A stretch of 64,000 nt of DNA, from NCBI GenBank assembly GCA_010015675.1, contig ML976977.1:1841448-1905447 (forward strand). Direction: 5' to 3'. Origin of the DNA: Byssothecium circinans (Eukaryota > Ascomycota > Dothideomycetes > Pleosporales > Massarinaceae). A model generated the notes under the pieces. The model ran no database searches, was not told the DNA's origin, and saw nothing but the letters and a program-made list of their open reading frames with translations. Position numbers and translations under genes: made by a program. Shown piece after piece: positions 1,588 through 26,002 of this stretch. Position 1 is the first letter of the stretch. The number at the start of each line of letters is the position of its first letter.

Positions 1588-4500
1588 TCAAGAAGTAGCA
1601 CCCCGCCTTCCAAGAAGCCCCCAAAACACCCCCATAAGACCCAAGATGGTAAAAGTGGGGACTGAGGCATTCTGTATATCGTTTGGGTGGTTCATCAACC
1701 AGTAGACCCAGAAGCTGAACGCTGAAAAGAAGAGAGCAACATGATATACGAATAAAATCGCAAAGGATAACGAATAATCTGCTTCAAGTCCAAACGCAAC
1801 TTCTCCTGGTTGGCTCTGGTCTACATTGAAAGCACTTTCTTTCCTTGGAATGCGTTTCCATTTATGAGAATGGCGTGGGAGAGGACGGCATTTATGCAAG
1901 CAGAATGGTAGCAGAGCCCAGGAGCAGTGCATGTCGCATGCCTTGAGACAGATAGCAAAGAGCTTTCGGTCGATCAGTGGATTTCTAGCCCGTGGAGGCC
2001 GAGGATCATATTCATAATGATCCGTATAACCATGATCCTCGGGAAGGGCTTCGCCGCTACTGTAAATTTGATCGACATTGATTGTCTCGAACTATGATGT
2101 TTAGTTGTCAGGGTTTCAACGCTTGAAGGTGGCGCTTACTCGAACAAACTTACAATAGCGGAAGCGGAAGGGAGAAAACCACCGTTGGAAGAGCCAACGG
2201 TGCTTGTTATGTCTTGTCTTCAGCTCCTGGAAAAAGGAAGGATCATCGAGCAGACTTGTCATCTCAATATTTTCAATCTCATCGAAGTCGTGTGTATTCT
2301 GGACACCGAAAACTACCCACGAAGGGACTCGCTGCCGTATTACGGGATTGGCGCTTGGACAACCGCCTTGTGCTTGCGTGCCGCTAGAACCGTTCGTTCT
2401 TGGGGAAAATATCGGTGGTGTTTTTTTAGTTGGACTATGTGTATAAGCTGACGACGCAATGCTAGCGGTCATAGACGCTGGAGTATAGAGCTGTTGAGCT
2501 TTTGATGACGACTCCTGGGTTGTCGATGCAAAGCTTAGGGTTTCCCGATGACACATCCTTGCGACTGATTGGCATATACGATGGAAGGTAGTCGTCCAAG
2601 TGGCCGGAACCGTCATTGTTTCACAGCAGGAACAATCAAATGGATGGTCCCCGATGAAAGCCAGGGCCCGCTGTATAGACTCGGCCTCCTTCAGCGAGAT
2701 TACCTTGAACAGATGTTGCTCACAAAACTGTACCTGCTTAGCATTTTGTATAGCTCTCTCACTGTGGCAGAAGAGTTGCTTACTGTCCACTGTAGCCGCA
2801 ATCTACCAGGTGGCAGATCCGGTATTCGAGGCATTAGAGGCCACCAGTCCCATTCGAAAGCGCTGTGGTCTTCGGCAAATGCCTTGATTTTGTTCATTAA
2901 AGACGTGTCATTCACAGATGAGATATGAATGGCATGTTTCCGAGTGCACGCTATCACTTCCCTTATCGACACCGGGAGAACCAACAGTCTTAGCTCGTGG
3001 ACTAGCTCTTGAAATGGACTGCCTCTGCGTAAAAATGCGGTGGCCTGGGTGATGCTTGGAAACCGCAGCTCATTAGGACGATGCTCATCTGTGTCGACGT
3101 CACTGTCACACTCGTTGCCGGATTGTGAATACTCTTCCTCAATTGGTTTGGTGTTTTCTGCGTTTCGCAATGCGTACACGTTCTTTGCCCATTTTTCAAG
3201 GTGAATCTTTTCCACTGGCTGGTGAGTCAGTCCATCCATTGGCTTCGAAGAGCTCTCTCCATCTCCCTGTATGAGAGCTACGATCCGCTGTGCTATGTTG
3301 AGCCGATTCATTCGAGACTTCAGAACCGAGACAGTATCTTTCTCTACTGCAATGTGCGCTTCGTTCTGCAGCTTCAACACATATAGTTTGAGAATCCGGC
3401 GATAGTTCTCTTGGAAGCGCTGAGTCCCGAGCCTTACAAGAGCCTCTTCATGCAGTGGACGTAGCTCCTCTAGCTCTGCAAAAAAGGAACCAAATTGCCG
3501 AACGGCTAGAATCTCAGGTTCTGTTCTTCTTATCGCAGCTCGTGAGGCGATGTCTTCGTCGTTGGACTCCACAGATATGCAGTCCTCATCTGTAAGAACT
3601 TCCTGCTTCATCTCCCGCAAAGATGAACAATAGTTGAGTTCCGTTGCGTCTTCGTCTTGAGTGTCCACTAGTGTCGTACTCCCAACAGTGGAATCTGCTT
3701 GAGTGGAACGGTAAGCCTCGGCCCTTGCATGCAGAGAGGTTTCGTCGACAGCTGTTGGAAGTAAAAACTCCTTTCCAGGGGAACGGACTGCGACGACGTC
3801 CTTGAGCAGCTCCACCGCCTTCTGCACCTGTCCGTCCGCTTCGTATGCTACTGCGAGCGCGTGCTGCGACGCCAGTCGAGACGGGTGCTCCTCCGCCAGC
3901 ACCTTCTCGCGCACTACGACCACTCGCTCTAGCAGCTCCACCGCCTTCTGCAGCTGTCCGTCTGCTTCGTATGCTACTGCGAGCGCGTGCTGCGACGCTA
4001 GCCGAGAGGGGTGCTCTTCTGCCAGCACCTTCTCNNNNNNNNNNNNNNNNNNNNNNNNNNNNNNNNNNNNNNNNNNNNNNNNNNNNNNNNNNNNNNNNNN
4101 NNNNNNNNNNNNNNNNNNNNNNNNNNNNNNNNNNNNNNNNNNNNNNNNNNNNNNNNNNNNNNNNNNNNNNNNNNNNNNNNNNNNNNNNNNNNNNNNNNNN
4201 NNNNNNNNNNNNNNNNNNNNNNNNNNNNNNNNNNNNNNNNNNNNNNNNNNNNNNNNNNNNNNNNGGGGTGCTCTTCTGCCAGCACCTTCTCGCGCACTGC
4301 GACCACATGCTCTAGCAGCTCTACCGCCTTCTGCAGCTGTCCGTCTGCTTCGTATGCTATTGCGAGCGCATGCTGCGACGCCAGCCGGTCGGGGTGCTCT
4401 TCCACTAGCACTATCTCTTTCACTGAGACTACATGCTCCAGCAACTGCACCGCCTTCTGTACCTGCCCGTCTGCTTCGTATGCTCCTGCGAGCTCGTGCT

Positions 4501-7067
4501 GCGACGCCAGTCGGTCGAGGTGCTCGCGCTTGCGAATGTGGTTGAATGAAACCATCCACGTTGCGATCACTGCGTTCGCCGACCCCTTGTACCGCGTGTC
4601 GTCGCGGAACTCTCTGCTTATTAACGCAACAACGTCTTGCTCCGTGCTCCGAAGCAGCCATAGGTACTCCTGAAAGGACATGCGATTTCTGTTTAGGTAG
4701 GCGGCAGCCTGCGTGATAGCGAGTGGCAGGCACGTCAACTCAGCCAGTAACTCAGTTGTCGTTGCATCATCGTGAAAAAGGCCTTTCCTTGTCAGCAACT
4801 TTTCAAGGAAGGCGGCTGCGTCCTGTCGGTCCATCGCCCCAAGCTCTACGACATCGCCGCGTGTTAGCTCAGCTATCTCTGGGTTGCGCGTCGTGTACAT
4901 GACCACGCCTGCCTCGCTCTTGGGCAGGTACTCGATGATGCCCTTTGACTGCTCCGTTCCGAAGAAGATGTCAGCGTCGTCAGCGTTGTCGACCACTAGC
5001 AGCCACCGCCCTACTCGGCTTGAGCTTAAGTGCTGCTGCACTATCTCTTTTACGTCTTCTTCTTCGTCTGCTGCTTGCGGTATGCGCAGCGCTTCTGCGA
5101 TGCCTACGCATGCTTGCTCGAAGCTCTCCATGCTCAGTGCAGGCACCCACAAGACTGAATACTCTGGCCACCTTTCTTTCACGCTGTATGCAAACTGCAG
5201 TGCAATCTGTGTCTTGCCTGTCCCGCCAAGCCCCACGATAGACAGCTGATGGCAGTCTTGATCTACTATCAGCTTCTGCTGCAGCATGCGAATCTCATCT
5301 TGTCTTCCGACAAAGTATCGATTCTTAGTAAAGGGAATGCAGTAGGTCGCTTTGGCTAAACAGCATTAGCGCTAATACACAGCTACACGCAGGACTGCTA
5401 CTGCACTAACCGCTCGCCTCTCGAACTGTCTCGTCCACCGTGTGTGTCTTCCCCACCTCAGCTGGCGGCATCACCGACAGCACTTCCTTTGCCCACGCAG
5501 CCGGAGTCGCTACGGCATACGGCTGCCACCGTTTGTTCTTGTGCGAGTCGGCGTAGGAACAGTATTTGGTCATATGTCCTAGCTTTCTGCCTTGCAAACA
5601 GTTATGTTAGTGACGCACGATACCACAGAAGAGTAACTCACAGTATATACAACGAACAGGATATCCGCATTCTGATGCTTTGTGTCCGGGATAAAGGCCT
5701 GATAGTATGGTTAATTGATTTGAAAAGCCATAAACACATACGATGGTTATACATTTACCGCAGGCAGTTGCACAATGATTCTTCCAATGTCCTAGACGCC
5801 CGCAGTTGAGACAACGACCTTCATTCCAGCGCAGCTCCGTCTCCTCTTGCCACTCTACTTCGCCCGCTGCAAGCTCCCACACTATTGCCTTCCGCAAAGC
5901 ATTATTCTGCTTCTTGCTTCCACTCGGACCAGCGCGTATATGCAGACTCTCTGCAAGCCATTCGCGGAACCTTATGCCACAGTTTAGGTCAAGTACCTTC
6001 AGCAGATCGACTACAGACTCCTGCCAATTCAGTCTCTTATTTTTCCCACGTGCCAAATCCGCAAGAGCAGCATTTAATTCAGGCTGTTCTGGGTATATGG
6101 AGTCGTCTGGACCGTCAATAGCGTCACGCATAGTTTTTTGCTCGACGACATCGGCGAAAGGGATGATTGATAGAAGCTCCTTCGCGTAGGCTGCTGCTGT
6201 CGCCGCCGCGTACGCCTGCCACCGCCTGTTCTTGTGCGAGTCAGCGTACTCGCAGATGCCGCGGATCACCAGACACGGGAAGCTGTTTATCAGGCCCGCC
6301 GCCTCCATCTCGAAGCAGAGCACGCCGCCGAGCTCTTCGCTGACTTTGTCTCGTTCAGCCGCGCTCCTCATCACCTGGTTGCCCGATGCGATCGTGCCGT
6401 AGTGTACCACCACATCCTGCCTCCGCGGCTCCCGAACTGCTAAGTAGCTTTTGTCGCACTGCCTGCATGTCGCTCCTCCCTCATGGTTGTACGTCACGTG
6501 GTAGAGAGCGTCCGGGCCAGCAGCTTCTCGCGTGAAGTCTGGCAGACTATCGAGCTTGGACAGATACTCGGCTAGTCTGCCCCTCCCTCTCATGTGCTTG
6601 GCCCGCAGGTTCGCGACCGCGCTAAGCAGAACTGTTGGCGGAGTGTTCAGCGATCCGGTGCGTTCAAATCCACTCGGCGTAGCCTTGCTAGAGTCGTACT
6701 GCACCACTCCGCCATGCACCTTGTGCGGCATGCTAACCACCACGTCCCCAAGCCTAATGTCTGCTTCCTCACTAGGCACGCCTCCTCCGATGCCTACCAT
6801 CAGTCCAAACCGCGTAGACGTGAACGCCAGCCCCATCTGGACAGCGACTGCGGCAGCCGAATGGGTGCCTGTTTGCCCTTCAGGCAGGCAGGCGATAACG
6901 ACGTTGTGCTCGCCGACTCGTCCGCAGGTGTAAATATTGGTGTCGTGGGCATCGGACAGGGGCGTCTCGTGCTCTTCGTCGAGCATCTCCTGGGCGGCTG
7001 CCAGCTCGACGGGCAGTGCGCACACCCATCCCACCGCGTACTCTTCGCGGCGCAGCTGGCGCGTCAT
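1588..7067 (-). CDS. NLR-like receptor: PNP_UDP / DUF3597-like / CCHC knuckles / NB-ARC / TPR / C-terminal two-TM region
   Basis: Six-exon model: 7067-5759, 5698-5642, 5590-5411, 5355-2784, 2733-2140 and 2091-1588. Introns (60, 51, 55, 50, 48 nt) all have GT..AG ends. Known exon sequence sums to exactly 1,662 codons, so the assembly gap must be a multiple of three. Order: PNP_UDP domain (about residues 8-310, starting EEYAVGWVCALPVELAAAQ), a DUF3597-like segment (about 340-400), a CCHC knuckle (5,813-5,772), a second CCHC rebuilt by splicing intron 2 (5,651-5,559), and a duplicate of the PNP C-terminal segment (5,556-5,440). Then comes NB-ARC with P-loop GLGGTGKT (5,233-5,210) and LLVVDN near 5,005-4,985, followed by 42-residue TPR units (4,533-3,800). 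The C-terminal half resembles a conserved fungal region with two hydrophobic segments near its end (1,780-1,590). The usual winged-helix part between NB-ARC and TPR appears absent. Fungal NLRs of this kind are linked to nonself recognition and cell death; the role here is inferred. Confidence 0.75.
3805..4533 (-). repeat. Near-identical TPR repeat array (126-bp units) inside the NLR gene
   Basis: Four visible 42-residue units of the type RLASQHALAVAYEADGQ..KAVELLEHVV, two on each side of a run of N. Units differ at very few positions, as in NLR repeat arrays that undergo concerted evolution. Phase is conserved on both sides of the gap: codon ends at 4,265, codon starts at 4,034. The missing piece should therefore be 99 + 126n bases. 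225 bases (one extra full unit) is close to the 230 placeholder Ns. Confidence 0.85.
4035..4264. other. Assembly gap (230 N) within the TPR array
   Basis: Run of N that falls exactly in the near-identical repeats, so it is most likely a collapsed or unresolved repeat. It shifts the apparent reading frame by one base because 230 is not a multiple of three. That shift is an artefact and not a mutation. Confidence 0.95.
5356..5758 (-). other. Intron cluster 1-3 of the NLR gene (5758-5699, 5641-5591, 5410-5356)
   Basis: Intron 1 starts GTAAAT and ends CAG. Intron 2 starts GTGAGT, has CACTAAC as branch-like sequence and ends CAAG. Intron 3 starts GTTAGT, has GCTAATG and ends TTTAG. Removing intron 2 creates a perfect CCHC knuckle (C-x2-C-x4-H-x4-C). 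Removing intron 3 joins the duplicated PNP tail to the typical NB-ARC lead-in IPFTKNRYFVGRQDE. These two results are the main support for reading everything as one gene. Confidence 0.75.
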
Positions 7068-9785: not shown

Positions 9786-10689
9786 AATAGGAATTGAGGA
9801 CGATGAACCATTTTTGGCTAGGGGTCGAAACTAACAGGGTTTGAAATGGGAACCAGATATCGAGAAACGGGGATTAAGGACGATAAAATTTAACTATTTT
9901 TAGCTAGCCCTTAAAACTAATAAGGGGCTTAAAAAGGGACCTAGGAAGTATACTACGTCCTAAAACGCAAACTACTATAGGGTTAAAATAGGAACTAGAA
10001 AGCTAAAACAGGACTAGTTTAAGAACCTAGTAGCCGTAATTAGGTATTAGTTTAAAATCTATATCACATAGTAATACTATTTTATAGTCTATATATTTAT
10101 AGACTAGCCAGTCTAATCTCTACTGCTATAGTTATATTATCTTAACAGCATTTATGCGTACTAGCATATGCTAAGTTAAGGTAAGCTGTAAATAATAACT
10201 ACTAGAAGCTATTAAAAACCCTCTATAAGAAATTAGCCAAGCTATATCTAGAGTACGATACTTATATATATTTCCTAATATATTGCAATAGACAATTTAA
10301 TAGATTTATATTAATAGATAAGAAGATAGGCCAGCCTTAGTTACCTCTAAGTTAAGAAGCTCTTATAAGCTCCTCCCCTTCTACAACTAGTAAGAGTTAA
10401 CTCCTATTAAGGATAAATTATACCCCCTGCTAGTAATAAAGTTACTAGCCTATTACTATCAAGCTTAACAAAGACTAGCGAATATAGCCTTCCGTAGGGC
10501 TATTTTGCATAAATATTTAACTAAATATAGCGTAACCTTAGCACAGGGAAGTTACGCGTAGCTAAAAATAGGGCTTACATTATACTAAGCTAAGTATAAT
10601 AATAAAGACAGCGTAGGGGCTAAAGTAGAATCTAAATTTAATATAGTTTATCTAATTAAATAGTAGAATAATAAAAGAGTATCTTATTT

Positions 10690-18300: not shown

Positions 18301-21300
18301 AGCTATTATAATGCTTTTAAAGCTACCCTTTAAAGCTACTACCTAAGTAGCGCTAGCTTTTTCCCCCTCTCTATGATATCCTAAAGCTACACACCTATAG
18401 ATCCTGTACTAAGCCTATGTAAGGAGCCTAACTTGCCTAGCCTAATATAATAGGTATCTTAGGATTAAAGCCTTTAGCACCTACGTAATAGCACCCCTAA
18501 GGATAATTAACTAGATAAGCAAGTATTTTTATATAAGTTATACTTGCCTGTGTAGGCTCCAACTAGGCGCTAAGGATACCTAGGTAATATTCTTAGACAA
18601 ACTTATAAGATAGGGTATGTTAAGTTGCGTAGCTTACTCTATCTCTTACTAACCTTTAATTACCTACTATACTTAGCGAATAGATTACTATTCCCTATAA
18701 ATAGCCTCTAAGGTGTAATTTAGAGACTATAGCAACACCTAACTATAAGGGGTAGGCGTAGTATTATAGCAAGGAGTAGTATACTAAAGGTTATACGTAA
18801 AGCCTATTACTACTTACGTAAAAGGTAGGTAGAAGCTACTATTACTTAATATACCTTATATCCCTCTATAGAGCTCTATATAGCTACTATCTAAAGAGTG
18901 CTAGCTACTACCCCTCTATAGCATCTAGGTGCTATGCGCTTATAGATAATTTACTAACCCTATCCTAAGAGACTTTACTACTTACCCTCCTTAAAAGCTT
19001 AAGGCATACTCTAACTTCTACTGTCTAACGTTTAGGTTCTATGGTAACTCCTTTTATATATACCCCTATACTTTGCTAATAATCTAGGCTATTCTAGATC
19101 GCTAGCGTAACAAGGTTGCAGACAAGGTATAGGTATATACTTCTAAAGTCCCTTCGTCTATAGTGCTAGCTACGCCCTAAACTAGCAAGGGGGACTTTAT
19201 GCAATATACTTACTAGTATACCTAGGCTACTGTAAGTGCTACCTTTATCTATTAGCGCTGTTAATACTAAGGCTTAGATACCCTATCTATATAGAGGTTT
19301 GTATTAGTAGGTGCTATATATAGAGACGCTATCTCCCCTAAGCTAGAAGGTAAGATATAAATTTTACTATTACTAGAAGGAATAGACACTCTAGACTAAT
19401 CCTTTAGATTATAGAAAAACTAACGACGCTGCCTGTAGGGTAAGAACTACTTAGATAACTTATATAATACTCTTCTACTAATATATAGCCTCTATTTAAG
19501 ATATACCACGCGCCTATCGCAACTTATAGTGGGTTAGGCGCTTAAGAATGCCTTATAAGCAAGTCTAGTAAGCTAGTGGATTATTGATAGCTAGGTCTTC
19601 TTACGCTATATTTATATAACTTCTATATTAAGCTTAAAGCTTATGGTATTACTACTAGCGCTATCTTAAGATCCTAGCTCTAAGGCGTATATGTCTCTCC
19701 TTAGGGCTACCTCTAAAAGGGGCATAGTATAGAGAATATGTATAAAGCTACAGTACTCCTTAGGTTAAGTTAATATCTTTATAAGCTTCTATACTTCTAG
19801 TTTTATAGCCAATATATTATCTTTTAACCTATATCTTAACGAACCTACACTCTAGTTTGGAATAGAACTAACGTAGTCTTTTAATAATCTAGTTTATAAC
19901 ACCCTTCCTAGTAAATCTATAGTAGCTACTAATCTAAATAAAGAAATACTACCTCGCGATAACCCTAACTAGGCGGCCGCCGTTAAATTAGGGATTAAGA
20001 CTAAATTAGGAACTATGCTAAACTAGACTAAAGTAAGCGTAGATCAAAGCGCAAAGGAAGTGTTAACTATTAAGAGGTCTTATAACAATTATTTCCTAAG
20101 GAAGCAGTTAAATATAATAGAAGCCTTATATATACTAAAGAAACTAAAAATAGTTCCTAGTACTAATAAATTGCTAGGAGGAGCACTGACTATTAAGATT
20201 AACATACGTTAGACGCATTATAAGAACTATTAATTTATATTTCCTAGTACGAAGCAGAACAACATGATAAAAGTACAAGAGTAAGTAATAATAGTACTAC
20301 TTCCTAGCACTAATAATCCCTAGGCAAATACTAATACTGTAGCTAAAAGTTAAGTTAGTACTACTAAGATTAAGGCTTAGTATATAGCTTTAGAGCTTTC
20401 TAGGCTTAAAGACTAGACTAGGAGTAAAGACAAGAACTTAGAAATTTAGTCTAAATCCTAACCTACTAGCAAAACGCTGCAAGAGGTTGCTGAAAAGGAG
20501 TCTAAAGCAATAGTTAATATTAAGGGAGACAGTCCTACTAAGGCGCTTAATAGTTAATATGTAGGTGCTATACTACTTATTGAAACAGCTATATAGGTAG
20601 GGACGGAATTAGTTAAACTAGATTATAAGATCCTTACATCTAGGATAGTACCTATAGACCTATCAACAGCTCCTAACTACAAGCTTAGTTATAGTAGTTT
20701 AGTTATAGGTATACCTACTAATATCTTTTAGGGATCTAGCTCTAATATAGAAGTTTAGTCTAACTAGTTAATTAATTTAAACTAAAGACCCTTAATACAC
20801 GATAAAGCCAAGGAAGCTAGAGTTAGCGAATTGCATATAGGTACTGTCCCTTCTATTAAAACCTATAGGCAACAAAGCTAGACTGCCTAACTAAGCGAGG
20901 ACCGTGCTAGATTAAAGGCTACTAAAGTAGCGATACTAATAAGCTAAGAACTAGGATCTTTAATGAATCTAATTACTATACTAGATAACTCCTATATTGT
21001 TAATAATAATAGGGGTATACCTATTGTTACTAATACTATAGATAAGGTTAGAGATAATAGAAGGACTAGACAAAGACTACTATAATAGGACTTAATTAAT
21101 TCGCTATCTAAGAACTTAATTAATTAGACTTCTAAGGACTTAGTTAATTAGATATCTAAGGACTATAAGAAGTAATATAAAATAAAGATATTAGTAGAGT
21201 AGAAGAATATACTAGAGTAGTAAGTTATACTAAGTAAGCTTAAGATATTCTATAAAACTAAGTAGTCTAAGGCTTTTAGGATAGCGATAAGAAAAGCATA

Positions 21301-21650
21301 CAGGGTCGTCTAGAAGGGCATTTCTAGACCTCTAGGAAATATAGGTATACTTTATAAGGAGTAGAAGAGTTTCGAACCAGAATTACTATAAGGCTTATAG
21401 GCTAAATTAGACAGAATACTTTTACGTAAGTTTAGAAGGACTTTAGTACAATTTTATAAGGTAGAAATTAAGAGACTAGGTACTAATATTGCTATAAGCG
21501 ATAATACTAACGATAATAACTATAAACTAAGTAGTCGCTCTTAGTAGAGTAGTTTTTTTTTTAATTAATAAGGTTAATCTACTATATAAGTCTATTTAGC
21601 TTTAGTAAAATCTGTATTAAATTTTCTTTCTACGCTAACTTTAAGGTATA
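18300..21650 (+). pseudogene. Long RIP-masked fossil reading frame (about 800 codons visible), function unknown
   Basis: From about 19,240 to 21,640 one plus-strand register reads as protein for about 2.4 kb. Essentially all stops are TAG/TAA convertible from CAG/CAA/TGG. Visible fragments include LGIKTKLGTMLN (about 19,990), TKALNS (about 20,540) and a Lys-rich C-terminal part around 21,170-21,500. A weaker register extends upstream to about 18,300. It was probably a large transposon protein. I recognise no domain, and lengths are approximate. Confidence 0.45.
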
Positions 21651-22745
21651 GCTTGTAATCTAGCATTAACCTAAGCATAGTATCTAGTTTCTTAAGCTAG
21701 TACTATTAGAATAGTTTACGCTTTAGCGTACTATAGTAGTAGGTATCTCTCCTTAGAATAAAAAACGCTATATTAATAACTATAATACTAGAATTAATAG
21801 GTTAACTTAGAACTATAGCATTAGAAAATAGATAACTATATCTATAATTAGAACCTACTCTAAGCAAATAATAGAATATTATACTTAGGATCTAGCGTGC
21901 AAGTAGTTCAGCTACTATTCGCTTTTACAGAAGCTTGCAAAATTAGTTTCCGCTTTTTCCTATACAATTAGCCTTAGCCGAAGAGCTCTAATCAGCCTAG
22001 AGCCGTGTACTAAAATAGCGTAACTAAAAGACATGCAAAGCTAAGACCTAATCTATTATTCTTGTCTAATTCTATACGCTCTTAATCTACTAAGCGATGC
22101 TTATTGACTATAATTGCTGCCTGGATAGCGCGGAACTTTTTATATACTCTTATAATTATCTTCTACCTAACTAGTAAGGCATAGATGTTTAGCAGCTACA
22201 GGCTTGTAGAGGCTGTAGATATACTTAATAATATTTAGACTACTATAAATCACATAATATACTAATAGTACAGCTAGAACGTTAAGACTAGTAGGATAAT
22301 ATAGGCGCTAAAAGCTCTTTACTATATCTAGCTAAGAAGTTTTTAGTTAAGCGCTTCTTTAGCTTATAGAAGTTTTGAGCTTATAGAAGTTTTTAGCTTA
22401 TAGAAGTTTTTAGCTTATAGAAGTTTTTAGCTTATAGAAGTTTTTAGCTTATAGAAGCTAAGACATTATTCTTAAGATTTATAAGCAATAATAGAAACTA
22501 AATAATAAGCCTGCTAATAGAGGACGCCCACCCTAACACGGACAAGGAAGGACTGTAAAGATCTAGCTTACACTATATTTAGGAGTTAACAACTATATAG
22601 CTTTATTATATCTATAGACGCTGTCTTATAGGGAAGATAGCGCTATAGGCAGATACTAGCTACTAGAAAAAACTATTGATATACGTAATATTAAAGAGTA
22701 GCTATAGTGTCCTTTCCTCTTAACAACATAACTTACCTTACCTAA
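21650..22745. repeat. RIP-degraded sequence with an 18-bp tandem array and a short coding remnant
   Basis: At 22,337-22,460 the unit cttatagaagtttttag is repeated about six times. From 22,495 a plus-strand remnant reads KPANRGRPP (AT-hook like) and continues to about 22,735 with RIP-type stops only. No family is recognised. The remnant ends just before the Rep-like frame. Confidence 0.45.
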
Positions 22746-22767
22746 CACTCTTTATTACTACTAAATC

Positions 22768-24253
22768 ATGTTTTCTTAAAATCTGTTCTTAGCCTATAAT
22801 AACCTTAGTAGTCTAACCTAAGCCTTCGCGAATACGTCACCTAGGGCTACTAGCGACAACATTAAAAAGCCGTAAGTCCCTTAAAGTAGTAAAGAATAAT
22901 TTGTATAATAACTAGAATCTCCTCTATTCATCTCCTCCTTAACTAAAATCCCCTTAATAAACCTGCCACCGCCTACGCCACAAGAACCTGCGCCGTAAAA
23001 TGATAAAGAACTAAGTGATGAGTAGGAGCCTATCGCCTCTAATGTACCTTTCTAGTTAGTAGCTAAAACTATTTTCCTTACCTTCCTAAAGTATCGCCTA
23101 GACCTAAAAGAATTTATAGAGACTATTAAAAAGTAGGGGTTTAAGGACTTTTACGCTATCTAAAAATAATATAAGGATGGAACCCTATACTTCCACATCC
23201 TTAGTAAGTAGGCTACTAAGCGAAACATTAAATTACATAAAGCCTTTAATATTAGGGAATACTACCCTAATATCTAAAAAATAAAAAACCGCCTTACCGC
23301 CTAGAGATATCTTTACAAAAAGGGCGCTCTATATATTAGAGGGGAGATAGCTATGCTAAAATTAATTTAGTAAGATATCCGCTAAGATTTCTAGGCGGCG
23401 GCGGTTAAAGAAACTAATAAAGACGCGTTTCGCGAATAGTTTAAGAAGGAGGCTACTAAAGAGTACGTCCTACACTACTCTAACGTGCGCGTATACATGT
23501 GCGACACCTTTAAGGAACGCGTTATCGCATATAACCTCCTTAAGCTTATTGGTGAGTAGAAGATCCTAGACACTCTTACTACGTAGTATAATAAAAACAT
23601 TAATAGTAAGTTAAGTCTATAGCCCTAACCCTAATCTGCTATGCTTAGCCTAGATAATTACATTCCTCTAACCCTTATCTTAAAGGTTGCATACTCTAGG
23701 GTAGGCCTCTAGGCTCTAACCCTAACTACCCTAACCCCCTAACCCCCTAACCCTAACCCTAATTAAGGGTACGGGTGACTGCTGCTTAACTTAGGGGCTA
23801 AAACACTAACTTATTATAGATATAAGAAGACTAAAAACCCTATACCTCTTTAGTAAAACCTAGTGCTTTAAAACTATCTAAGCCTACTTACTCTATCTCG
23901 TAACCTATGCATACATGAGCGGTTAGTAGAACTCCTAATAATTTAACCCTACCTGCTAGTACATTGTAATTAATGACGTATCCCTAGAAGATAAGGATAT
24001 ATTTAAATATTATAAATAAGTGCTAGACTACTAAAGAGAGTTTTCTATCACGGACAAGTATTATAGGAAGACGCACGTGAGAAATTAGTTAAAACTATGC
24101 ATCTACGTTAGCAACGTAGACCTACGTAACTACACGGGAATTAACGTAGACTAGTTAGAGGGAAACTGTGTATTTATTAAAGTAAATGCACCTTTCTTTA
24201 AAGAAATTAAAGTAATGTTAAAGGACTCTAATAATATGCGCCAGCTAGCATAG
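22768..24253 (+). pseudogene. rep: Endogenous CRESS-DNA virus-like replication-associated protein (Rep), RIP-inactivated
   Basis: A frame starting at ATG 22,768 keeps all hallmark positions of a rolling-circle Rep. Motif I-like FLTF is at 23,074-23,085. The HUH position (now read Y-F-H) is at 23,188-23,196. The catalytic Y-x-x-K is at 23,308-23,319, followed by K-G. After a telomere-like insertion come a Walker A-like G-A-K-T (about 23,806-23,817) and, one frame over, a Walker B-like V-I-N-D at 23,966-23,977. A strongly conserved helicase stretch then leads to a motif C-like S-N at 24,110-24,115. Reps of geminiviruses and genomoviruses have this order (HUH endonuclease, then SF3 helicase). 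Broken by about 20 RIP-type stops, a frame change between 23,760 and 23,960, and the insertion; no activity possible. Closer affinity to fungal genomoviruses than to plant viruses is my inference. Confidence 0.75.
23623..23768. repeat. Interstitial telomere-like repeats (CCCTAA type) inside the Rep fossil
   Basis: A short run ccctaaccctaat at 23,623-23,635. A longer degenerate run of about nine CCCTAA / CCCCTAA units lies at 23,714-23,766 and ends at aattaaggg. It separates the endonuclease and helicase halves of the Rep frame. The unit contains no CpA/TpG, so RIP would leave it intact. Confidence 0.85.
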
Positions 24254-24283
24254 AAAATAAAATAAGATAATAAATATAATTAA

Positions 24284-25261
24284 TTATACATCTAGCTTCT
24301 CGTGTATATCTTACTAATAATAATGAGTAGTAATGGCCCGTATCTCTATAGCTAGAAAAGCAGAAGCTTAATAGAAATTCTAAGGGAGAATCTCTATAGG
24401 CGCCTTAGACGGCGCCACTAATAATATAGATGGTGCCCTCTTAGCCTTCTTCGCAGAAAGCTTAGAAGGACTAGCAGAATGGGACGTAACACCTATAGGT
24501 AGGTTAATCTGCATAGCATCTATTAGGACCAAATTAAACTTTTGCTACTTAAAAGAGAAATAGCCTACGTAAACAATTATAAACTAATAAAACCTATATA
24601 TTAACTCTAAATTTAGCAAAGACTACTCCTAAGTTAAACTTAAACTAAACGCTAAACGCCGCCTATAATCTACCTAACAATTAAATGGCTGAGGCTCCAA
24701 ACCTAATGCAGCACCTTAGCTATAAAACGTCCAATCTAAATACACATCTTTCTAAGCTTTTTTTACTATAGGCTAAAAAATAGCCTCCTAAGTCTTATCC
24801 CGTTCTAAAACGGGACTAATAGATGGGATAAGCAAAGAAGACCTAACGCAAGAAGAATCTCTTAAAACGCTAAAACTAAGCCTTATATCCTAATACTAAA
24901 TACCACCATCAATGCCAGAAACTGGAGCAAAAAGACTGTTTAGATCTTGATTCTAAATGGTGAGAACTCAGATTGAATAATTCTAAGAGGTGAGGACTTT
25001 AAAGCGAATTCCACCCCCCTAGGATTAGATAACGTCATTAAGGCGGCAGCTTAGAAGAATGAGCTCTATTATAGGTAACATAAAATAGGTATCCCCTATC
25101 CTAACATAATGCTTAAAAGTAGTAAAAGAACTAAAGCGAGAATAGAGCCAGGCCTTAACGGACTAAAACGCCTCTGTAACATCGTGAACAGCGCGAGCAA
25201 AAGAATAAGGAACCTAATGATGGACATTACGGTAATACCTGCTATTACGTCTAAAAGGCAT
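24284..25261 (-). pseudogene. Convergent 325-codon fossil frame with Arg-rich N-terminus; capsid-protein candidate of the CRESS-like element
   Basis: On the minus strand, ATG at 25,261 opens one register that stays in phase to TAA at 24,284 (978 nt). About twenty internal stops, all TAG/TAA/TGA, are derivable from CAG/CAA/TGG by RIP. No frameshift is needed. The start is short, basic and aromatic (begins MPFRRNSRYYR), as expected of small ssDNA-virus capsid proteins. It converges on the Rep frame with about 30 bases between the two 3' ends, the arrangement of a genomovirus/geminivirus genome opened at its large intergenic region. The length is also typical. No fold could be checked, so capsid identity is inference from position, length and N-terminus. 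Confidence 0.55.
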
Positions 25262-25880
25262 CCTTAATAAAAATGATAGTAAGGACGACGGCGGTTATAA
25301 TAACGCTAAGCTAAATATACGCGCCGTGTACTATATCTAGTGAAACGGACTAGACCGTATAAATAGCAATTACTATAGAATAAGCAATAAAATTAAGAAA
25401 AGTAAGGCATAACTAACGGAGCGCTATAAGAAGCGGCGTAGTTAAATATACGGCACAGCAACACAATTATACGATAGCTAGATAATGAGCTGCCTAATAG
25501 AGAAGGTCTAACAGACATCATAACTATTTAGTAAACAAACTTTATTAAAATGCGGTATAGCGCATAACTAATATAACTGCTTAGCTGGCTAAAAGAGGCC
25601 GCCTAATACTATTAACGGAATGGTCTGATACATTAGTAGCTTAACTCTCTGCCGCATATAACTAAAACACACTATAGCATGCAATACTAATTATTTAAGG
25701 ATATAATAGAAATTTAGAAACACACGTCCTACCTAGTCTAGCAATTCTTTCTTATTTCACACTACGCTAAGGCAAATTCAATACTTCTAAGCTAGAGTAC
25801 CCCCCTCTAGTAGGGTACCCTACTTCTATCTACCTAAGAATACTACTGTCTAACTAAGGACACTAGGATACTAGATACCA
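25262..25880. other. Region between the capsid-like frame and the Gypsy element (candidate intergenic/boundary region)
   Basis: No coding frame supported. If the CRESS-like reading is right, part of its large intergenic region should be here. A stem-like inverted repeat, gagtacccccctctagtagggtaccctac, lies at about 25,795-25,823. Recognisable Gypsy gag-homologous sequence begins near 25,885, so a junction lies between. Confidence 0.35.
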
Positions 25881-26002
25881 TAGCTATAGTATTAGTATAC
25901 TTACTTTAAGTCTAGTATTAGTAATAGCTAACTAGGCTAACTAGATATAGCAATAGGCTAAATAAATTAATAGGTTAATATAGGTGATTACTTAACTCTA
26001 GG

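What the first reader, a model, noticed from the sequence alone, without database searches (positions are those of the whole stretch)
22768..25261. Endogenous CRESS-DNA virus-like element with Rep and a convergent second gene in a fungal chromosome
Rep-type motifs appear in the canonical order on the plus strand (motif I, HUH, YxxK, Walker A, Walker B, motif C) despite RIP. A minus-strand frame converges on it with about 30 bases between them. That is the layout of a whole genomovirus/geminivirus-like genome linearised in its intergenic region, which would be more than the rep-only fossils usually reported. RIP on it also implies it was multicopy or sat among RIP targets.
Basis: partly seen in the sequence, partly recalled or inferred. 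Interest (0 to 1): 0.93.

Follow-up and report, generated by a model that had tools for sequence, protein, structure and literature searches.

The report
Decayed viral Rep gene in fungus
A fungal chromosome carries the badly decayed remains of a replication gene like those of small circular DNA viruses, next to a second decayed coding stretch whose identity and even strand could not be settled, so a whole fossil virus is possible but not shown.

Summary
The Rep is real. A 98-residue piece (window 23,056-23,349, X at every stop) matches Pfam Gemini_AL1, the geminivirus Rep catalytic domain, over profile positions 5-108 of 113 (E 0.0014, 19.1 bits, below the curated 24), as its only Pfam match. 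Helicase-type motifs follow in another frame (23,921-24,247). Between them lie 244 bases without codon periodicity, holding telomere-like CCCTAA repeats.

Codon periodicity is significant in the catalytic part (2 of 2000 shuffles as high), the helicase part (21 of 2000) and 24,281-25,261 (0 of 2000), and absent in the insert and both flanks.

The claimed convergent second gene is a coding-like stretch, but its strand is unresolved: minus fits one frame, plus fits with frameshifts. No search named it capsid, transposase or anything else. The unit 22,466-25,886 was found once in the assembly (searches not exhaustive), between a repeat with one close copy and a many-copy LTR-retrotransposon-like element. 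All of it is RIP-mutated.

Best reading: a geminivirus/genomovirus-type Rep fossil, a kind already reported in fungi. A whole Rep-plus-capsid genome is possible but unproven.

The parts
22466..25886 (.). single-copy unit that holds the Rep remains and the second coding-like stretch
   Evidence: left edge = end of a repeat shared with contig C33; right edge = start of a many-copy repeat; no second copy found (one search scored 40 of 314 candidates)
   Evidence: no periodicity (795 of 2000); + frame best of six, 20 of 541 RIPped windows elsewhere as good
23053..23352 (+). Rep catalytic (HUH endonuclease) domain, 7 in-frame stops, all TAA/TAG
   Evidence: PF00799 E 0.0014 for the 98-residue piece 23,056-23,349; stops; weak PDB Rep alignments E 0.8-1.2 behind an intein at 0.38
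23074..23085 (+). motif I, reads FLTF
   Evidence: aligned with the Rep chain of 6q1m
23188..23199 (+). motif II remnant, reads YFHI (one His left)
23218..23274 (+). stretch in the place of the geminivirus Rep sequence (GRS), between motifs II and III
   Evidence: position and reading; within the PF00799 match; name recalled
23308..23319 (+). motif III, reads YLYK (YxxK)
23552..23795 (+). non-coding segment inside the Rep: intron or insertion; begins GTGAGT
   Evidence: no periodicity (642 of 2000); sequence
23623..23762 (+). telomere-like CCCTAA repeats
   Evidence: 4 of the window's 8 matches to CCCTAACCCTAA (up to 1 mismatch) lie here; 0 of 100 shuffles of the window reach 8
23794..23805 (+). 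possible Walker A remnant (GAKT)
   Evidence: four residues only
23921..24247 (+). helicase-type part: Walker B-like IVIND (from 23,963) and motif C-like CIYVSN (24,098-24,115); 9 in-frame stops
   Evidence: periodicity of 23,796-24,280: 21 of 2000; no family or PDB match
24281..25261 (.). second coding-like stretch, 327 codons; minus frame from the ATG at 25,261, or plus frame(s) ending in the stop after 25,267
   Evidence: 0 of 2000 shuffles as periodic; strand unresolved; no homologue found
22685..22693 (-). TAATATTAC, the geminivirus-type nonanucleotide, chance not excluded
   Evidence: 5 in the window against 4.78 expected; its possible stem ranks 12th of 90 TAATATT sites

Best explanation
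This is an old endogenous viral element: a Rep gene of geminivirus/genomovirus type, from a circular ssDNA virus or virus-like replicon, integrated into a filamentous fungus's chromosome and then mutated by RIP in a transposon-rich region. It does nothing now: each Rep part carries in-frame stops, the parts lie in different frames, and a non-coding, telomere-like segment splits them. In life (inferred from the family) such a Rep nicked the origin of a circular DNA, stayed covalently bound through the YxxK tyrosine, and unwound DNA with its SF3 helicase for rolling-circle replication. Integration probably came through repair of a nicked or broken host site (inferred). The RIP is most simply spread from the duplicated retroelements beside it, or from lost copies (inferred). 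A second decayed coding stretch of about 1 kb follows; whether it is a capsid gene on the opposite strand or more plus-strand coding sequence is open.
For: PF00799 over nearly the whole profile with motifs in order, no Viral_Rep, Helitron or plasmid Rep family listed; coding periodicity in both Rep parts and absent in the insert and flanks; a codon model trained on RIP-simulated host ORFs picks the motif frame in both Rep parts; RIP-type composition throughout; neighbouring LTR-retrotransposon-like repeats. Fungal Rep fossils nearest to the genomovirus SsHADV-1 are published (PMC3198968).
Against: The Pfam score is below the curated cut-off, and one of ten control sequences reached E 0.0071 with another family. 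The helicase part has motif evidence only. The genome search with PF00799 did not list this locus at all; at E <= 10 it listed one other place, C31, E 0.401. Weak matches to other families also occurred: an NCBIfam sigma factor E 0.021, a PHROG of unknown function E 0.052, an intein in PDB E 0.38 ahead of the Reps. Direct searches for relatives found none for the catalytic piece (only chance hits at E 2-3).
Confidence: 0.8

Rival explanations
1. A whole genomovirus-like genome: spliced Rep on plus, capsid gene on minus converging on it, linearised in the large intergenic region.
For: Second stretch is coding-like in one minus frame of 327 codons that opens with an ATG at 25,261, where periodicity ends; its left half looks minus-coding (0.004 of simulated genes as extreme if plus were true). 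Size from 23,041 to 25,261 is 2.2 kb, against 1.9-2.3 kb and ambisense genes in genomoviruses (PMC7077246, passages). The insert starts GTGAGT, as an intron would. TAATATTAC on the would-be capsid strand upstream of Rep.
Against: No capsid match. The right half looks plus-coding (0.004 if minus were true). TAATATTAC is at chance frequency, its stem ranks 12th of 90, and none of 7 flank pieces folds better than its shuffles would allow by chance (lowest z -1.31).
Confidence: 0.35
2. A Rep-bearing transposon or a long Rep-like gene: the second stretch continues on the plus strand as a C-terminal part or second plus-strand gene, as in the geminivirus-like transposon of Tuber.
For: Right half scores as plus coding and includes a 62-residue open plus frame ending at 25,267; allowing frameshifts, plus scores above minus in the amino-acid model (9.6 against 4.4). 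The Tuber element joins a Rep with transposase ORFs (PMC3198968 section 8).
Against: Needs one or more frameshifts; codon model gives a tie (-0.0 against -0.5). No transposase match. No terminal inverted repeats above background. No second copy found.
Confidence: 0.3
3. Chance: RIPped non-coding DNA that happens to resemble Rep.
For: Below-cut-off Pfam score; a shuffle reached E 0.0071 with another family; no direct homologue.
Against: The one family that matched is the one predicted beforehand from the motifs, nearly full-length and in order; independent periodicity in exactly these parts and not in the flanks; no PF00799 in 12 neighbouring frames.
Confidence: 0.05

Closest known systems
Endogenous SsHADV-1-like (genomovirus-type) Rep sequences of fungi (Liu et al. 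2011, PMC3198968; passages and sections 6-8 seen)
   Same: Geminivirus-type Rep domain, decayed, in a fungal chromosome; single or few copies in most of the species tabulated.
   Different: Here RIP-mutated, split by a telomere-like non-coding segment, and followed by a second coding-like stretch; in that survey all fungal entries are Rep and the three capsid-like ones are in tobacco and sloth.
Geminivirus-like transposon of Tuber melanosporum (same paper, section 8)
   Same: Rep-like gene with a second coding region in one element.
   Different: Tuber: 42 Rep genes or remnants, 37-bp terminal inverted repeats, transposase ORFs. Here one copy found, no such repeats, no transposase match.
Genomoviridae (PMC7077246, passages; intron and nonanucleotide details partly recalled)
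   Same: Rep type (inferred), size range, possible ambisense layout, possible intron.
   Different: Capsid not identified, origin hairpin not shown, Rep non-functional and integrated.

Membership tests
Geminivirus/genomovirus-type Rep (PF00799) | Catalytic domain with motifs I, II, III in order | tested here: met
   E 0.0014, positions 5-108 of 113, 19.1 bits, below the curated 24; motif II has one His of two
Geminivirus/genomovirus-type Rep (PF00799) | SF3 helicase with Walker A, B and motif C | tested here: inconclusive
   B- and C-like motifs in order, Walker A a remnant, no family match
Genomoviridae (complete genome) | Capsid gene on the strand opposite to Rep | tested here: inconclusive
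   coding-like stretch, strand unresolved, no capsid match; the genome search with PF00844 found nothing, but its controls rang nowhere
Genomoviridae (complete genome) | Origin hairpin with nonanucleotide | tested here: inconclusive
   TAATATTAC present at chance frequency, stem 12th of 90, fold z 0.11
Genomoviridae (complete genome) | Rep phylogeny within the family | not testable with these tools
   no genomovirus Rep could be obtained; a geminivirus-type fragment also found nothing in viral contigs, so that collection's silence is uninformative
Geminivirus-like transposon (Tuber type) | Terminal inverted repeats | tested here: not met
   best outer inverted pair 72% over 32 bases, like unrelated pairs; flank-to-flank inverted score reached by 48 of 200 shuffles
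Geminivirus-like transposon (Tuber type) | Many copies | tested here: not met
   self only; one search scored 40 of 314 candidates
Helitron / plasmid / circo-nano Rep | Match to the corresponding Pfam families | tested here: not met
   one search lists PF00799 only at E <= 10 (filters drop most above about 0.1); no plasmid match

The most novel reading that the evidence does not exclude
A complete, RIP-mutated genomovirus-like genome, Rep with intron plus capsid gene, caught in a fungal chromosome, with telomere repeats captured inside the Rep, which would mean that a virus insertion and a telomere-type break repair met at one spot.
Probability: 0.25. Interest if true: 0.7.

Novelty: new member of a known kind. 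Interest (0 to 1): 0.4.

Why it matters
It adds a fungal host lineage to the Rep fossil record and shows such a fossil inside RIP-mutated heterochromatin, where ordinary BLAST surveys would miss it. If the second stretch were shown to be a capsid gene, it would be a fungal fossil with both genes, whereas the survey read here tabulates only Rep for fungi (PMC3198968), and would show which viruses infected fungi long ago.

Tried and rejected
Relatives by sequence. Catalytic piece: none in viral contigs, plasmids or the protein database (15 candidates, none at E <= 1); phages gave 6 records at E 2-3, taken as chance. Helicase piece: 9 candidates, none; viral contigs gave one locus, L003 (37% over residues 15-52, E 2e-5 against candidate stretches only, contig 12,842 bases), not followed up. 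A degenerate pattern for one conserved stretch gave 2 contigs of 14 and 52 kb, not followed up. Second stretch: 602 candidates, none; viral contigs none in either orientation.

Families. PHROGs weak hits only (E 0.052, 0.18, 0.2); NCBIfam a sigma-factor model at 0.021; PDB arginases at 0.2-1.7 for a piece of the second stretch, none for two other pieces. Rfam: nothing in the window.

Coding strand of the second stretch. A first codon model from one host ORF favoured plus (0.4 against -22.1); a better one from 47 host ORFs (19 of 20 fetched stretches used, one AT-rich one left out) favoured minus slightly overall (2.3 and 5.6), minus strongly in the left half and plus strongly in the right half; with frameshifts allowed plus leads or ties. 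The model finds the true frame in 72 of 95 (amino acids) or 78 of 95 (codons) simulated pieces, and in some 201-base windows of the catalytic part a minus frame scored best. I therefore drew no conclusion. The stretches tested for periodicity were drawn after reading the translations.

Terminal redundancy. A gapped direct similarity 22,486-22,522 / 25,464-25,502 was reached by 6 of 200 single-base shuffles; too weak to use.

Literature searches without a RIP-mutated endogenous CRESS element in their listings: (0 papers). Subscription journals are not held.

Full report
SETTING. The window is part of contig C1 of a 48.4-Mb, 109-contig genome. Bases 1 to about 9,800 are ordinary (GC 0.50; CA and TG at 1.10 and 1.15 of expectation); from about 10,000 on GC falls to about 0.3 and CA and TG fall to roughly a third, the mark of RIP. 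The left part encodes an NB-ARC and TPR protein and a phosphorylase-superfamily protein, arrangements familiar from filamentous ascomycetes (recalled). The exact telomere repeat CCCTAA x4 occurs 112 times; of the 9 contigs listed, 7 carry it at an end that I could verify.

THE UNIT. Window 18,502-22,147 has a copy on contig C33 at 90.7% identity, which resumes at 22,145-22,409 (91.7%) beyond 5.6 kb inserted in the C33 copy and runs out in a 17-base minisatellite at about 22,463. From 25,887 on the sequence is a repeat with at least 40 other places whose frames match reverse-transcriptase RNase H domains (E 1.2e-15 and 3.1e-13) and weakly gag (0.029); calling it Gypsy-type is inference. Between them, 22,466-25,886 was found only once. 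That is not a proof: one search scored 40 of 314 candidates and did not list the 265-base C33 match that a direct comparison found.

THE REP. With X at each stop, the piece 23,056-23,349 matches PF00799 at E 0.0014, 19.1 bits, profile 5-108 of 113, and no other Pfam family. The score is below the curated 24 bits. Of ten controls one reached 0.0071 and one 0.071, with unrelated families, so the E-value alone is modest; the weight lies in its being the family predicted beforehand, matched almost end to end. Twelve frames of the neighbouring repeats, 17,274 residues, gave no PF00799 at E <= 0.1. In PDB three Rep chains align at E 0.8-1.2, behind an intein at 0.38. A genome search with PF00799 did not list this locus. 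The motifs read FLTF, YFHI, YLYK: one of the two histidines of the HUH motif is gone. The 166 codons of 23,053-23,551 hold 12 stops, all TAA or TAG.

THE SPLIT. 23,552-23,795 begins GTGAGT, has no codon periodicity (642 of 2000 shuffles as high), and holds four of the window's eight matches to CCCTAACCCTAA (0 of 100 shuffles reach eight). It may be an intron or a telomere-type insertion; RIP of a CCCCAA-rich tract could also make such letters (inference). After it come a Walker A remnant in the first frame and, in another frame, Walker B-like and motif C-like stretches with nine stops in 109 codons. The frame change implies a frameshift or a second intron.

PERIODICITY. Against 2000 dinucleotide shuffles each: 23,041-23,551, 2; 23,796-24,280, 21; 24,281-25,261, 0; but 22,466-22,767, 1586; 22,768-23,040, 795; 25,262-25,886, 461. 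Against other RIPped windows of this region, which include decayed retroelement genes, the values are not exceptional (0.08-0.29 of windows as high). The limits of the stretches were set after reading translations.

THE SECOND STRETCH. The minus frame from the ATG at 25,261 has 23 stops in 327 codons, the plus frame in the same codon register 21. Such antisense pairs mimic each other. A codon model trained on RIP-simulated ORFs of this genome names the motif frame in both Rep parts but splits here: for 24,281-24,769 minus wins by 14.8 (amino acids) and 10.4 (codons), for 24,773-25,261 plus wins by 13.1 and 5.4. With frameshifts allowed plus leads by 5.2 in one model and 0.5 in the other. No library or database named it. 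The viral collection may simply lack such viruses: a geminivirus-type Rep fragment also found nothing there.

ORIGIN. TAATATTAC lies on the minus strand at 22,693-22,685, the right strand if the capsid were minus, but the window holds 5 against 4.78 expected, its stem ranks 12th of 90 and the piece folds no better than its shuffles (98 of 200 as good).

RIP. It is as deep in the catalytic part as in the retroelements (CA 0.27, TG 0.28) and shallower in the second stretch (0.50-0.51, 0.53-0.75). Spread from the repeats on both sides, or from copies now lost, would each explain it; neither is shown.

COMPARISON. Liu and colleagues (PMC3198968; passages and sections 6-8) tabulate Rep-like sequences in eight fungi, all nearest SsHADV-1, none with a capsid entry, and a Tuber transposon that joins a Rep to transposase ORFs. 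Passages of PMC6186406 and PMC9603141 agree that fungal elements lie near Genomoviridae. The present Rep is a new member of that kind. The second gene would make it more, but that is not shown.

Noticed in passing
window 23,623-23,762: Telomere-like CCCTAA repeats inside the Rep remains, about 212 kb from the contig end.
   Followed up: partly
L019 2,372-7,967 (contig C33): The C33 copy of the left repeat carries 5.6 kb not present in the window copy, with 3 bases shared at the joint; a likely transposon insertion.
   Followed up: no
window 22,335-22,457: 17-base minisatellite at the end of the left repeat, also in the C33 copy, where part of it reads N.
   Followed up: no
window 26,002-64,000: Nested, repeatedly duplicated LTR-retrotransposon-like copies in both orientations, all RIPped.
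   Followed up: partly
window 3,998-7,067: NB-ARC/TPR and phosphorylase-superfamily ORFs side by side on the minus strand, an NLR-like fungal gene, just outside the RIPped region; an N run lies in its TPR part.
   Followed up: partly
window 9,800-10,000: Sharp change from balanced host DNA to RIPped AT-rich DNA.
   Followed up: no
window 22,486-22,522 and 25,464-25,502: Weak direct similarity on both sides of the two coding stretches (6 of 200 shuffles as high).
   Followed up: partly
L003: A 12.8-kb viral contig with a weak match to the helicase piece.
   Followed up: no
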